Source: Planobispora longispora
GTDB taxonomy: Bacteria > Actinomycetota > Actinomycetes > Streptosporangiales > Streptosporangiaceae
Direction: 5' to 3'
Assembly: GCF_016863135.1 (NCBI RefSeq)
Contig: NZ_BOOH01000001.1
Span: 186,001-250,000, forward strand
Length of the DNA stretch: 64,000 bases
Below the pieces are notes generated by a model. It was not told the DNA's origin and did no database searches. It saw only the letters and a list, made by a program, of their open reading frames with translations. Numbering within the stretch: position 1 is the stretch's first letter; every line of letters begins with the position of its first letter. Shown here piece by piece: positions 13,174 to 59,338 of this stretch. The translations under genes and the position numbers were made by a program.

Positions 13174-13399
13174 GGGACACGGCCTCCGTCGCTCCCGACG
13201 ACGGCGTGCGGACGCCGCGGCCCGGTTCCGGCGTCTGACGGGTCCCCGACGCCGAGGCGTTTCGCCGGGACTTTCATGCCTTTTGGCCCTCAGTGGAGGC
13301 AGGCAGCCGTCTGACGGGGCGTTCACGTCTCCCGCTTGACCAGACGTTGACCTTTCGCGGCTCATCCCACCGCTCCGCCCGCCGATGGGATGGCACGGA

Positions 13400-13525
13400 A
13401 GCCTAATCCGCGGCCCCGCGGAGCCGGGAACCCATGTGTTTCCTGGGGTGAATCGGCGCGTTCGCGCGCCGTAGGGCACTTCCGAGCCCGAACCCGTCAG
13501 CTAACCCGGTAGGCACTGGAAGCCG
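13400..13525 (+). promoter_or_regulatory. c-di-AMP riboswitch (ydaO/yuaA class)
   Basis: The leader of the CHAP gene has the conserved parts of this class in order: CCGCGGAGCCGGGAACCCA, TGGGGTGAATCG, a GCGCG-TTCG-CGCGC hairpin, GTAGGG, then CCGAACCCGTCAGCTAACC and GGTAGGC. In actinomycetes such elements commonly precede cell-wall hydrolase genes and switch them off when c-di-AMP binds. The remaining 13174-13399 gap shows TTGAC-type promoter-like hexamers near 13336-13357 but no gene. Boundaries are approximate. Confidence 0.88.
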
Positions 13526-13546
13526 AGCAAGGAGTCGTACCCCTCC

Positions 13547-55600: not shown

Positions 55601-56449
55601 TCACTTCCCGTCGGCGGGGATGACGGAGCCGTTGTACGTCTGCTCGATGAACTGCTTCACCTCGGGGCCGGACAGCAGCTCGGCGAGCTTGACCACGCGC
55701 GGGTCCTGCTCCTTGCCCGCGGCCACGACCAGGCCGTTGGCGTACGGGTTGCCCTCGGCCTTCTCCAGCACCAGCGCGTCGGTGGCGGGCTTGAGACCGC
55801 CCTCGATCGCGTAGTTGCCGTTGATGACGGCGGCGTCGACGTCCTCCAGCGAGCGGGGCAGCTGGGCGGCCTCCAGCGGCTGGAAGGTCAGGTTCTTCGG
55901 GTTGGCGGCGACGTCGCGCTCGGTGGCGGCGGTGCCGACGCCCTCCTTCAGGGTGATCACGCCGTTGTCGGCCAGCAGCTTCAGCGCGCGGCCGAGGTTG
56001 GTGGCGTCGTTGGGCACGGCCACGGTCGCGCCGTCGGCCAGCTCGGCGGCGGCCTTGATCTTCTTGGAGTACAGGCCCAGCGGCTCCAGGTGCACGTCCT
56101 TGACGTAGGTCAGTTTGGTGCCCTTGGAGGCGTTGAAGTCGTCCAGGTACGGCCGGTGCTGGAAGAAGTTGGCGCCGAGCTGGCCGTCGTCGAGCTGGAC
56201 GTTCGGCTGGACGTAGTCGGTGAACTCGACGATCTCCAGGTTCAGGCCCTGCTCGGCGGCGAGGTTGTCCTTGACGAACTTCAGGATCGCCGCGTGCGGG
56301 ACCGGGGTGGCGCCGACCTTGAGCACCTCTCCCGCCGCGGGCGCGGCGGCGCCGGTGGACTCGGAGGTGCCGGACCCGGTCGAGCCGCAGGCGGTCAGGG
56401 CCAGGGCCAGGGCGGTGGCGGCGGATGCGACGGCGAAGAACCTGCGCAT
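55601..56449 (-). CDS. metQ: Methionine-binding lipoprotein MetQ
   Basis: 282 aa, ATG with AAAAGGAG upstream. Lipobox LTAC (Cys21). NlpA family: LKVGATPVPHAAILKFVK, LEIVEFTDYVQPNVQLDDGQLGANFFQH (in two parts) and VPNDATNLGRALKLL. Captures methionine (L- or D-) for MetNI. Third gene of metNIQ, 100 bases after metI. Confidence 0.94.
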   Translation of the reverse strand: MRRFFAVASAATALALALTACGSTGSGTSESTGAAAPAAGEVLKVGATPVPHAAILKFVKDNLAAEQGLNLEIVEFTDYVQPNVQLDDGQLGANFFQHRPYLDDFNASKGTKLTYVKDVHLEPLGLYSKKIKAAAELADGATVAVPNDATNLGRALKLLADNGVITLKEGVGTAATERDVAANPKNLTFQPLEAAQLPRSLEDVDAAVINGNYAIEGGLKPATDALVLEKAEGNPYANGLVVAAGKEQDPRVVKLAELLSGPEVKQFIEQTYNGSVIPADGK

Positions 56450-56549
56450 GGTGTGCGCTCCTTTTCGGATGGGAGTCCGGGACCCGCTCATGACGGAGTC
56501 CCGGGAGAGAAGCCTCACGACGAGGCTCTGGAAGAGAGGCGGGAGGGCG

Positions 56550-57206
56550 TCAGCGGCGGGTGAGGCGGCGGGCGACGGCGTCGCCGACGGTCTGCACGAG
56601 CTGGACGATGACGATCAGCACGATGACGGTGACCACCATGAGGGTGGTCTCGAAGCGCTGGTAGCCGTACCGGATGGCCAGGTCGCCGAGACCGCCGCCG
56701 CCGATCACCCCGGCCATGGCCGAGTAGGAGATCAGCGCCACCACGGTCACGGTCAGCCCCGCCACCAGGCCGGACCTGGCCTCGGGCAGGAGGACCTTGC
56801 CGATGATCGTCCAGCGGCCGGCGCCCATGGCCTGGGCGGCCTGCACCGTGTCCCGGCCGACCTCCCGCAGCGCGGTCTCCACCAGCCGGGCGAAGAACGG
56901 CGCGGCGCCGAGCGTCAGCGGGACGACGGCGGCGAAGGTGCCGATGGTGGTGCCGACGATCAGCCGGGTCAGCGGGATGACCGCGATCATCAGGACGATG
57001 AAGGGCAGCGACCGGCCGATGTTGACGACCAGGCCGAGCACCCGGTTGACCGGCGCGGAGGGCAGCAGCCCGCCCCGGTCGGTGAGGATCAGCGCCACGC
57101 CGAGCGGGAGGCCGAGCAGGACGGTGAACAGCGTGGACCAGACGACCATCAGGGCGGTCTGCCCGGTCGCCTCCCACAGCAGCGGGCTCATCTCATCCCA
57201 GCTCAT
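56550..57206 (-). CDS. metI: Methionine ABC permease MetI
   Basis: 218 aa, five hydrophobic helices. MVVWSTLFTVLLGLPLGVAL near the start; the ATPase-contact loop reads AAQAMGAGRWTIIGKVLLPEA. The start codon overlaps the metN stop (ATGA). Confidence 0.94.
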   Translation of the reverse strand: MSWDEMSPLLWEATGQTALMVVWSTLFTVLLGLPLGVALILTDRGGLLPSAPVNRVLGLVVNIGRSLPFIVLMIAVIPLTRLIVGTTIGTFAAVVPLTLGAAPFFARLVETALREVGRDTVQAAQAMGAGRWTIIGKVLLPEARSGLVAGLTVTVVALISYSAMAGVIGGGGLGDLAIRYGYQRFETTLMVVTVIVLIVIVQLVQTVGDAVARRLTRR

Positions 57207-58165
57207 GCCGCCTCCTCCACCAGCAGGCCGCGCCCGGTCAGATAGTCGAGGGCGGCGGCGCGCTCGCCGCCGGTGAGACGGACCCGGAGCCGCCCGGCCG
57301 AGACGCCGGCCACCTCCTCCAGGGCGCCGCCGAGAATGCTCACGTCCACGTCGAACTTGCGCACGACCTCCGAGATCACCGGCTCGTCGGCCCGCCCGGT
57401 GAAGGTGACCGTGACGCTCCCGGGCTCGGGATCGGGCAGGGGGAACAGTTCGGCGGCCAGCCGGGAGCCGGGACGGGCGATCAGCTCGGCGATGCCGCCG
57501 GACTCCTCGATCAGGCCGTCGCGCATCACGGCGACCGAGTCGCAGATGCCCTTGACCACGTGCATCTCGTGGGTGATCAGCAGGATGGTCAGCCCCAGCT
57601 CGCGGTTGAGGTTCTTGAGCAGGGCGAGGATCGACTGCGTGGTCCCGGGGTCGAGGGCCGAGGTGGCCTCGTCCGACAGCAGCACCGAGGGGTTGCCGGC
57701 CAGCGCGCGGGCGATCCCGACCCGCTGCTTCTGCCCGCCGGACAGCTGCGCCGGGTAGGCCCCGGCCTTGCCGGCCAGCCCGACCAGCTCCAGCAGCTCG
57801 GCCACCCGCCGGGCCCGCTCCGCCCGGCCGACGTCCATAACCTCCAGCGGGAAGGCGACGTTCCCGGCGACGGTGCGCGACGACAGCAGCGCGAAGTGCT
57901 GGTGGATCATGCCGATCCGCTGCCGGGCCCGCCGCAGGTCGGCCTCGCCGAGCGCGGTCAGCTCCCGGCCCGCCACGGAGACGGTGCCCGCGGTGGGCCG
58001 CTCCAGCAGGTTCACGCAGCGCAGCAACGTGCTCTTACCGGCGCCGCTCTGCCCCAGCACGCCGAAGATCTCACCCTGGCGGACGTGGAGGTCGACACCG
58101 CCCAGGGCGACGACCTCGCGTCCCCGGTCTCGATAGACCTTGCGCAGGCCTGACACATCGATCAC
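57203..58165 (-). CDS. metN: Methionine ABC ATPase MetN
   Basis: 320 aa, GTG start. Walker A GQSGAGKST (about 38-46), signature QLSGGQKQRVGIARA, Walker B VLLSDEATSALDP, switch His in ITHEMHVVKGI. C-terminal NIL/ACT-like regulatory domain (VTVTFTGRADEPVISEVVRKF to RLRVRLTGG, about 245-305) that binds methionine for trans-inhibition. A ~300-base leader with a Met/Cys-rich ORF precedes it. Confidence 0.95.
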   Translation of the reverse strand: MIDVSGLRKVYRDRGREVVALGGVDLHVRQGEIFGVLGQSGAGKSTLLRCVNLLERPTAGTVSVAGRELTALGEADLRRARQRIGMIHQHFALLSSRTVAGNVAFPLEVMDVGRAERARRVAELLELVGLAGKAGAYPAQLSGGQKQRVGIARALAGNPSVLLSDEATSALDPGTTQSILALLKNLNRELGLTILLITHEMHVVKGICDSVAVMRDGLIEESGGIAELIARPGSRLAAELFPLPDPEPGSVTVTFTGRADEPVISEVVRKFDVDVSILGGALEEVAGVSAGRLRVRLTGGERAAALDYLTGRGLLVEEAA

Positions 58166-58219
58166 AACGGTTCCCCAACATGAATAGATCGCGGAAGAAG
58201 ACTTCAGGCGGGGGAAGGG

Positions 58220-58291
58220 CTAGCGCGTGCCGGGAGGGAACGGCAGGTGGCTCAGGCGGCGCAGGACGATGGTGTCCGCGGGGCAGTTCAT
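58220..58291 (-). CDS. Possible second leader ORF (23 codons) before metN
   Basis: ATG with AGAAGG 9 bases upstream reads MNCPADTIVLRRLSHLPFPP plus three residues and stops 54 bases before metN. It has no special Met or Cys content. Could be a genuine small ORF, part of an attenuator, or chance. Confidence 0.3.
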   Translation of the reverse strand: MNCPADTIVLRRLSHLPFPPGTR

Positions 58292-58354
58292 GGTGCAGGA
58301 CCTTCTCGGGAGGAACGGGGCCGGGGCTTCGGCGCGAGCGGGGGGCGTCCGGGC

Positions 58355-58471
58355 TCAGCGCATCGAGGGCATGCCGCCCATGGCACACGCGCAGGGCGTC
58401 CCGCACATGCGCGCGGCACGACACATGACCCGGCCCTGCGGGGTCATCCAGATGTCGTGCGCCACGTTCAC
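58355..58471 (-). CDS. Met/Cys-rich leader peptide upstream of metNIQ
   Basis: 38 codons from a GTG with GAGG 5 bases upstream. The second half reads VMCRAARMCGTPCACAMG and ends GGMPSMR: six internal Met and four Cys in 38 residues, far above chance in DNA this GC-rich. It lies about 190 bases before metN on the same strand. Such composition is the hallmark of attenuation peptides: ribosome stalling at Met (or Cys) codons when the amino acid is scarce would alter downstream RNA folding and raise metNIQ expression. Cysteine-rich leader ORFs that act this way are known in mycobacteria. Function here is inferred. Confidence 0.65.
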   Translation of the reverse strand: MNVAHDIWMTPQGRVMCRAARMCGTPCACAMGGMPSMR

Positions 58472-58585
58472 GTCTGCCTCAACACATCGCTCCTCTCCCG
58501 CATTCCCCTCGGTTCACGTGATACCCATCACACACACGAGCAGCCGGCCCGCCCGTGGAACCGGGCCGGACACGCCGGGGAAGAG

Positions 58586-58616
58586 GCGCTCTCCCCCCCG
58601 TCAGGAGGGAGAGCGC
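58586..58616 (-). terminator. Terminator of the two-component operon
   Basis: GCGCTCTCCC pairs with GGGAGAGCGC and spans the response-regulator stop codon. A second hairpin, CCGGCCCG/CGGGCCGG, lies at 58544-58569. Confidence 0.7.
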
Positions 58617-59338
58617 GGGAAGGGCTCCATCAGGCCGGCCTCGTGGGCGAGGATCGCCGCCTGGACCCGGTTCTCCAGCCCCAGCCTGGTGAGGATGCGG
58701 TTCACCCGGCTCTTCACCCCCGCCTCCGACAGGCCGAGGCTCCTGGCGACGCGAGTGTTGGACATGCCTCTGGCGACCAGGATCAGGACCTCCAGCTCGC
58801 GCGCGGTCAGCTCGCCGATCCGCCGCGCCGCCTCCGACCGGGCATCCGGCCGCGCCGCTCCCCCGGCGGGCCGTGGAACGTCGGCGAGCAGGGCGGCGGG
58901 CAGGGCCGTGACGGCGCCGATGATCCGCCGGGTGACGCTCGGGGCGAGCGCGGCCTCTCCTGCGGCGACCACGCGGATGGCGTCGGCGAGCCGGTCGGGC
59001 GTGGTGTTCTTCAGCACGAAGCCGGAGGCTCCCGCGCGCAGGGAGGCGTGGACGTACTCGTCGAGATCGAACGTGGTCAGCATCAGCACGCGGGGGCGGG
59101 GGCCGTCGTGCGGCCAGTCACCGAGGATGCGGCCGGTCGCCTCCACTCCCGTCATCCCGGGCATGCGCACATCCATCAACACCACGTCGGGCCGGAGCGC
59201 GAGGGCCGCGGCCACCGCCTCCTGTCCGTCGGCGGCCTCCCCGGCGACCGTCAGATCGGCACGCCGCTCGATCATGAGGCGCAGGGCCGCCCTGACCAGT
59301 TCCTGATCGTCGGCGATGAGCACGCGCACGGGCGTCAT
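58601..59338 (-). CDS. NarL/LuxR-type response regulator
   Basis: 245 aa. Receiver domain VRVLIADDQELVRAALRLM with phospho-acceptor Asp in VVLMDVRMPGM (about 54), Thr in MLTTFDLDEYV and Lys in GFVLKNTTP; an Ala/Pro linker; LuxR-type HTH RIGELTARELEVLILVARGMSN to VNRILTRLGLENRVQA. Its start overlaps the kinase stop (ATGA). Cognate to the upstream kinase. A beta-lactamase-fold hydrolase gene is divergent and may be a target. Confidence 0.93.
   Translation of the reverse strand: MTPVRVLIADDQELVRAALRLMIERRADLTVAGEAADGQEAVAAALALRPDVVLMDVRMPGMTGVEATGRILGDWPHDGPRPRVLMLTTFDLDEYVHASLRAGASGFVLKNTTPDRLADAIRVVAAGEAALAPSVTRRIIGAVTALPAALLADVPRPAGGAARPDARSEAARRIGELTARELEVLILVARGMSNTRVARSLGLSEAGVKSRVNRILTRLGLENRVQAAILAHEAGLMEPFPRSPS

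What the first reader, a model, noticed from the sequence alone, without database searches (positions are those of the whole stretch)
58355..58471. Met/Cys-rich leader ORF before metNIQ: likely translational attenuator
A 38-codon ORF with ribosome site has six internal Met and four Cys codons and lies in a ~300-base leader of the methionine importer. I see no SAM-riboswitch core on this strand, so ribosome stalling may be the sensing device. Cys-responsive leader ORFs are known in mycobacteria; a Met/Cys version for metNIQ would be new to me.
Basis: partly seen in the sequence, partly recalled or inferred. Interest (0 to 1): 0.72.

Follow-up and report, generated by a model that had tools for sequence, protein, structure and literature searches.

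The report
Two tiny control genes before metNIQ

Summary
The 38-codon ORF (ORF1) is real, but its 'ribosome site' lies in the spacer of a SigR-type promoter (GGAAT-N18-GTT) that ends 9 nt before GTG, so ORF1 is probably leaderless. Promoter and spacing recur in 76 of 77 related leaders; ORF1 drifts in sequence yet stays Met/Cys-rich (Met 12.5%, Cys 8.7%; shuffles 0.9%, 2.5%).

It is the best conserved part: 121 distinct leaders, 120 followed by metN, motif LSHxP[FY][PH]PGxx-stop, a coding substitution pattern, no match in Pfam, NCBIfam or the papers searched. Folding suggests that a ribosome at the ORF2 stop uncovers the buried metN start; in six leaders ORF2 runs on into the metN start. Best reading: a two-ORF leader in which ORF1 reads Met/Cys supply and ORF2 acts on metN. 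The ORF1-to-ORF2 link, any arrest and any ligand are inferred; the folding model does not support the link.

The parts
58518..58531 (-). Dyad GTGATGGGTATCAC (GTGA-N6-TCAC), candidate regulator site (Crp-type, name recalled)
   Evidence: 67 of 76 leaders have GTGA-N6-TCAC starting 23-25 nt upstream of the -35 (62 at 25); shuffle expectation 0.06; coordinates
58502..58506 (-). -35 element GGAAT of a SigR-type promoter
   Evidence: 76 of 77 leaders; published SigR consensus GGAATN18GTT (PMC2375139, passages); SigR-family sigma plus adjacent RsrA in this genome
58481..58483 (-). -10 element GTT, spacer 18 nt
58355..58471 (-). ORF1, 38 codons, Met/Cys-rich leader ORF (metL-like), GTG start, predicted leaderless (transcript start inferred at or next to the GTG)
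58301..58307 (-). Shine-Dalgarno-like GAGAAGG of ORF2, 9 nt before its ATG
   Evidence: sequence
58220..58291 (-).
58171..58176 (-). Shine-Dalgarno-like GGGGAA of metN
   Evidence: sequence; predicted to be buried in RNA structure
57203..58165 (-). metN, ATPase of the methionine importer; followed by metI (56550-57206) and metQ (55601-56518)

Best explanation
A tandem two-ORF leader controls metNIQ mainly at translation. A SigR-type promoter starts the transcript at or next to the GTG of ORF1, so ribosomes begin at the 5' end and read its Met and Cys codons; how fast they do so reports the supply of charged Met- and Cys-tRNA (inferred). ORF2 has its own ribosome site. In the free RNA the metN start is buried; a ribosome that reaches and pauses at the C-terminal PPG-x-x-stop of ORF2 covers the strand that hides the metN ribosome site and lets metN be translated (folding model; pause inferred). 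Low Met/Cys should then raise, and plenty lower, the ribosome traffic that reaches ORF2 (inferred). Shown by sequence: conserved promoter and spacing, conserved Met/Cys make-up of ORF1, conserved and translated-looking ORF2, strict link to metN, extension of ORF2 into the metN start in two lineages. Not shown: any response to Met or Cys, any ribosome arrest, the step from ORF1 to ORF2.
For: ORF2: 63 of 297 family genomes by one query, about 136 of 341 with the wider profile (144 at E<=0.02, 8 of which have only matches inside long open frames); 121 distinct leaders read, 120 with metN next on the same strand (78 of 78; 39 of 40 plus 3 of 3). Invariant His, Pro and Gly in 121 of 121, stop two codons after PG in 115 of 121; synonymous fraction 0.39 in frame against 0.12 and 0.17 in the other forward frames and 0.07, 0.30, 0.13 in the reverse frames; Arg12 switches between AGG and CGN. 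In the six leaders without that stop (Microtetraspora-type L050-L054, and L088) the frame ends on the metN start codon, which suggests that ORF2 translation feeds metN. ORF1. Folding: opening the metN ribosome site costs on average 12-15 kcal/mol; a ribosome at the ORF2 stop lowers it by more than 0.5 in 36 of 45 leaders, group means -1.9 to -3.9; in a scan of 16 leaders only positions at and 15 nt after that stop have a clear effect. Opposed pairing of ORF2 with the metN start is better than in synonymous shuffles in Nonomuraea-type leaders (mean Z -2.3, 48 leaders).
Against: No expression, ribosome-profiling or arrest data. In the folding model a ribosome anywhere on ORF1 barely changes the metN site (group means -0.32 to +0.77) and changes the ORF2 site little except in the five Microtetraspora leaders, so the proposed ORF1-to-ORF2 step has no support from it. 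The pairing test is weak outside Nonomuraea (mean Z -0.15 to -0.92). Three ORF1s have no internal Met. ORF2 was not recognised in Streptomyces (a loose pattern hits 2 of 30 leaders), where metL exists without it. In the six overlapping cases the conserved motif is not next to a stop. One ORF2 (L242) lies 16.5 kb from metN.
Confidence: 0.55

Rival explanations
1. ORF1 alone is the sensor (metL-type attenuator) and works on transcription, for instance through Rho access after ORF1; ORF2 is only a coupling ORF without a sensing role.
For: metL of Streptomyces works, if it does, without ORF2 (PMC8079986 passages). No intrinsic terminator is found here (0) and the authors of PMC8079986 found none after metL; Seliverstov et al. 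discuss Rho for Cys leaders without terminators (PMC1262725 passages).
Against: Does not explain why the ORF2 peptide is far better conserved than ORF1 or its fixed distance to the stop.
Confidence: 0.22
2. ORF2 encodes a small protein that acts in trans, for example on the transporter.
For: Protein-level conservation; it is always found with metN except one case.
Against: The conserved part is a short C-terminal stretch at fixed distance from the stop, the N-terminus varies in length and sequence, the ORF stays just ahead of metN in 120 of 121 leaders, no family match, 16-24 residues without a membrane-like stretch (by eye).
Confidence: 0.1
3. The conservation reflects an RNA element (structured leader or unknown riboswitch) and the ORFs are incidental.
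For: ORF1 ends in fixed nucleotides in several groups (TGT and CGA codons, CGAATG); in Streptomyces- and Actinomadura-type leaders a hairpin CTCGC-GCCCCGAA-GCGAG follows ORF1; ORF2 pairs with the metN start in Nonomuraea.
Against: ORF2 substitutions follow the reading frame; no Rfam match in the window leader or in ten leader loci at E<=1; the hairpin form is absent from Planobispora (0 matches in G000, G001, G003).
Confidence: 0.1
4. The leader ORFs have no regulatory role; only the promoter and the upstream dyad regulate metNIQ.
For: Strong promoter and dyad conservation.
Against: Frame-wise conservation of ORF2 over 121 leaders and Met/Cys bias of ORF1 over 76.
Confidence: 0.03

Closest known systems
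metL leader peptide of metNIQ, Streptomyces lividans TK24 (PMC8079986, passages read)
   Same: Leaderless short ORF rich in Met/Cys directly upstream of metNIQ, no typical terminator reported; 'CRRM' block as in the Nonomuraea and Actinomadura-type ORF1s.
   Different: Planobispora ORF1 has another N-terminus, a SigR-type promoter in place of the TTTACT-like -10 seen in Streptomyces, and a second conserved ORF before metN that the 30 Streptomyces leaders lack.
Polycysteine leaderless sORFs of mycobacteria, Cys-responsive attenuators (Canestrari 2020; not held here, known from a passage of PMC9031893, and its title)
   Same: Leaderless short ORF whose codons match the regulated pathway, ahead of a sulfur gene operon.
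   Different: No run of Cys codons in Planobispora, Met as well as Cys, a transport operon, and a second ORF.
RAPP-type (RQH) arrest peptides upstream of sec/yidC genes (PMC10987492 passages) and CruR of Bordetella (PMC9426467 passages)
   Same: Upstream ORF with a conserved Pro-containing motif close to its stop, predicted to act on the next gene.
   Different: Motif HxP[FY][PH]PG is not (R/Q/H)-(A/G/D)-(P/G/S)-(P/G); the peptide is 16-24 residues; downstream gene is metN.
TnaC-type ligand-sensing leader peptides (recalled, no call)
   Same: About 24 residues with the conserved residues ending near the stop.
   Different: Different residues, and no ligand or arrest is known for ORF2.
SigR regulon of Streptomyces, consensus GGAATN18GTT (PMC2375139 passages)
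   Same: Promoter match, and SigR with adjacent RsrA in this genome.
   Different: Control of metNIQ by SigR was not found in the papers searched (no paper with SigR, metN and Streptomyces); the 2012 regulon paper is not held.

Membership tests
metL-type leader ORF of metNIQ | Short ORF directly upstream of metNIQ with Met (and Cys) codons | tested here: met
   76 related leaders
metL-type leader ORF of metNIQ | Leaderless transcript | tested here: inconclusive
   Predicted from promoter-to-start spacing of 9-10 nt in 76 of 76; no transcript-start data
metL-type leader ORF of metNIQ | Response to methionine | not testable with these tools
   needs reporter assays
Polycysteine leaderless attenuators | Run of contiguous Cys codons | tested here: not met
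   Planobispora ORF1 has four separated Cys codons; CC or CCC only in some relatives
Classical transcription attenuator | Intrinsic terminator after the leader ORF | tested here: not met
   0 terminator-like sites in 58100-58640
SAM riboswitches and other Rfam leaders | Match to a covariance model | tested here: not met
   in this genome the SAM-I hit precedes a threonine synthase and the SAM-IV hit a SufS-like cysteine desulfurase
RAPP-type (RQH) arrest peptides | C-terminal (R/Q/H)-(A/G/D)-(P/G/S)-(P/G) motif | tested here: not met
   121 ORF2 sequences carry HxP[FY][PHD]PG
RAPP-type (RQH) arrest peptides | Located upstream of secA, secDF or yidC | tested here: not met
   metN follows in 120 of 121
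Arrest peptides in general | Ribosome arrest in vivo or in vitro | not testable with these tools
   needs toeprinting or ribosome profiling
SigR-dependent promoter | GGAAT-N18(-19)-GTT | tested here: met
   in the own genome the pattern plus GTG at 9-10 nt occurs 9 times, control 1
SigR-dependent promoter | SigR and RsrA encoded in the genome | tested here: met
   TIGR02947 351 bits and TIGR03988 104.9 bits, adjacent
SigR-dependent promoter | SigR-dependent transcription (for example after diamide) | not testable with these tools
   needs transcript assays

The most novel reading that the evidence does not exclude
ORF2 is the founding member of a new family of ligand-sensing arrest peptides (LSHxP[FY][PH]PGxx-stop) that senses a sulfur metabolite such as methionine, S-adenosylmethionine or cysteine from inside the ribosome tunnel, placed in series with a codon-counting Met/Cys ORF and behind a thiol-stress promoter: three sulfur inputs on one short leader.
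Probability: 0.22. Interest if true: 0.88.

Novelty: new variant of a known kind. Interest (0 to 1): 0.62.

Why it matters
If true, a family of antibiotic-producing actinobacteria controls methionine import with two upstream ORFs in series rather than with a riboswitch, and ties it to thiol stress by the promoter. The ORF2 motif, kept for ORFs of 16-24 codons in 13 genera as grouped in the search, is a compact and directly testable candidate for a new ribosome-arrest sequence, and the bare metL leaders of Streptomyces are a natural comparison without it.

Tried and rejected
SAM riboswitch or any Rfam family in the leader: none. Intrinsic terminator or sigma-70-type promoter: none. Covariation by RNAalifold on four genus groups gave only scattered variable pairs and different folds per group, so I claim no conserved RNA structure for the Planobispora leader. 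ORF1-to-ORF2 control by folding: tested and not supported. ORF2 in Streptomyces: 2 of 30 by a loose pattern, taken as chance. Whether SigR-type promoters explain metN in relatives without ORF2: of 43 metN loci (from 41 family genomes without an ORF2 match and 48 others) only one, L181, has the promoter with a start behind it, and its ORF2 is degenerate. ORF2 relatives L192, L191 and L205 scored 28.6, 21.1 and 9.9 against a null with 99% at 6.4 and a maximum of 12.5, so L205 alone was not safe; the 40 further loci settled it. Phage records hold nothing similar to the leader.

Rows dropped before counts: L064 (contig end) and L039 (no promoter found) from the 78 leaders, leaving 76 ORF1s; L039 and L064 are kept in the ORF2 counts. 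In the 43 Actinomadura-type leaders the automatic ORF1 choice is wrong or cut for at least L242, L245, L246, L255 and L261, so I give no exact composition for them. Folding used 45 of the 76 leaders (20 of 48 Nonomuraea-type, the two Microbispora and L088 left out), the scan 16. The 33 Streptomyces-type rows are 30 genomes, three counted twice (L206/L280, L207/L286, L208/L284), and 30 rows were fetched by the hairpin pattern itself, so only L206-L208 are independent there.

Full report
What was claimed.

Checking the ORF. The ORF, its six internal Met and four Cys codons and its place 306 nt before the metN GTG are as described. metN, metI and metQ are confirmed by family scans, though MetN and MetI score below NCBI's curated cut-offs. 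The 'ribosome site' is not supported: GAGGAG ends 18 nt before GTG. In the first alignment of five relatives the bases GGGAAT and GTT are invariant, 18 nt apart, and GTT ends 9 nt before GTG. That is the published SigR consensus GGAATN18GTT (PMC2375139, passages; the related SigH consensus of Corynebacterium is GGAAT-N18-19-GTT, PMC10012870, passages). The same-genus genomes have contig lengths equal to those of Planobispora takensis, P. rosea and P. siamensis records, so the window is probably from Planobispora. The genome has a SigR-family sigma factor with an adjacent RsrA anti-sigma factor.

Scale of the promoter and ORF1. Of 78 distinct leaders found through ORF2, 77 have enough upstream DNA; 76 carry GGAAT-N18/19-GTT (20 and 56; shuffles 0 and 0.05 per spacing). 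Those 76 have a start codon (74 GTG, 2 ATG) 9 (67) or 10 (9) nt after GTT and an ORF of 15-48 codons. These ORF1s differ much in sequence, yet internal Met is 12.5% (shuffle mean 0.9%) and Cys 8.7% (2.5%); all 76 have Cys, 73 have internal Met. Cys codons are TGT in 142 of 196, while in the first 300 codons of metN from 75 of these leaders TGT is 7 of 155. The three without Met are two Microbispora ORFs and L091. Direct peptide-level selection on ORF1 is weak in the Planobispora group and moderate in Nonomuraea. A dyad GTGA-N6-TCAC stands 23-25 nt before the -35 in 67 of 76 (shuffle 0.06).

The second ORF. The same first alignment showed a block better conserved than ORF1: 58220-58291, MNCPADTIVLRRLSHLPFPPGTR, with GAGAAGG 9 nt before its ATG and 54 nt before metN. 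It is below the 25-residue limit I had set. One query found it in 63 of 297 family genomes, and all 63 lie ahead of metN. A profile gave 85 of 345 genomes of the order at E<=0.01, five of them weak matches inside long frames, and 13 of 394 of the class, 11 of these in the same family. In loci without a match, relatives appeared in Actinomadura-like genera; with these added, 144 of 341 family genomes match at E<=0.02, 8 of them only inside long open frames. I read 40 more loci: 39 have metN 72-573 nt downstream on the same strand; in the fortieth, L242, metN is 16.5 kb away. In total 121 distinct leaders, 120 followed by metN.

ORF2 looks translated. Over 110 distinct sequences the synonymous fraction of differences is 0.39 in frame against 0.12 and 0.17 in the other forward frames and 0.07, 0.30 and 0.13 in the reverse ones; Arg12 uses AGG and CGN codons. 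His at -10, Pro at -5 and Gly at -4 are present in 121 of 121, Pro at -8 in 120, and the stop follows PG-x-x in 115. In the other six (five Microtetraspora-type and L088) the frame runs on and its stop overlaps the metN start. No Pfam or NCBIfam model matches.

How it may work. At 30 C the metN ribosome site is buried, 12-15 kcal/mol on average to open. A ribosome footprint at the ORF2 stop lowers this by more than 0.5 kcal/mol in 36 of 45 leaders (group means -1.9 to -3.9); a footprint on ORF1 does not. Among footprints placed every 15 nt in 16 leaders, only those at and just after the ORF2 stop have a clear effect; further downstream, where only 5-6 leaders could be tested, the effect is gone. 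ORF2 pairs with the metN start better than synonymous versions do in Nonomuraea-type leaders (Z -2.3), but hardly in other groups (-0.15 to -0.92). So the step from ORF2 to metN has model support, the step from ORF1 to ORF2 has none. I infer that Met/Cys shortage slows ORF1 and favours ORF2 use, by analogy with the Cys-responsive leaderless sORFs of mycobacteria (known from a passage of PMC9031893) and metL.

What is known. metL, a leaderless leader peptide before metNIQ with several Met, is listed for S. lividans (PMC8079986, passages). Earlier comparative work reported no conserved RNA structures before methionine operons in Actinobacteria (PMC1262725, passages). I found the metL-like arrangement in Streptomyces-type genomes: a hairpin CTCGC-GCCCCGAA-GCGAG occurs once per genome in 35 of 39 Streptomyces-type genomes examined and in one other (36 of 394); 30 of 30 fetched lie 138-244 nt before metN, and 29 have a Met/Cys ORF ahead by my rule, at least one in a wrong frame (L280). 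The hairpin also occurs in 41 of 43 Actinomadura-type leaders, two with a compensatory change. ORF2 is absent from these Streptomyces leaders as far as a loose pattern can tell. So metL appears older and wider, ORF2 belongs to the Streptosporangiales family searched here, and the SigR-type promoter to its Streptosporangium/Nonomuraea/Planobispora part. No paper in my searches describes ORF2 or SigR control of metNIQ (open-licence library only; the 2012 SigR regulon paper is not held).

Verdict. ORF1: new member of a known kind. The two-ORF leader with SigR-type promoter: new variant. ORF2 as a ligand-sensing arrest peptide: open, and the most interesting reading.

Noticed in passing
window 13390-13530 (+): c-di-AMP riboswitch (RF00379, 81 bits, gathering 38).
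   Followed up: no
window 58518-58531 (-): Dyad GTGA-N6-TCAC at fixed distance (23-25 nt) before the SigR-type -35 in 67 of 76 leaders, centre near -53 if the transcript starts at GTG; the regulator is unknown, Crp-type by recall.
   Followed up: partly
L268-L297, L206-L208, L228-L267: Hairpin CTCGC-GCCCCGAA-GCGAG right after metL-like ORFs in Streptomyces- and Actinomadura-type genomes, preceded by CGAATGTG...TGAGGGCCC; no Rfam match in ten loci tested.
   Followed up: partly
ORF1 of 76 leaders: Rare codons are fixed inside ORF1: TGT for Cys (142 of 196) and CGA for Arg (76 of 405 Arg codons), in Nonomuraea as CGA-ATG in 18 of 20; nucleotide-level constraint or slow decoding.
   Followed up: partly
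L162 and L163 (own genome): SAM-I riboswitch ahead of a threonine synthase and SAM-IV ahead of a SufS-like cysteine desulfurase, the same pairing as reported for S. lividans.
   Followed up: yes
L181: A Microbispora-type leader (genus g79) with promoter and ORF1 (MSVSNLMNPPRRECPGG) but a degenerate ORF2.
   Followed up: partly
L242: ORF2 and its hairpin stand without metN; metN of that genome is 16.5 kb downstream, perhaps after an insertion or rearrangement.
   Followed up: no
L057 and L090, between ORF2 and metN: Short tandem repeats in the gap before metN (three copies in L057 of a unit of about 28 nt; GTTCCAGAGCG-like units in L090).
   Followed up: no
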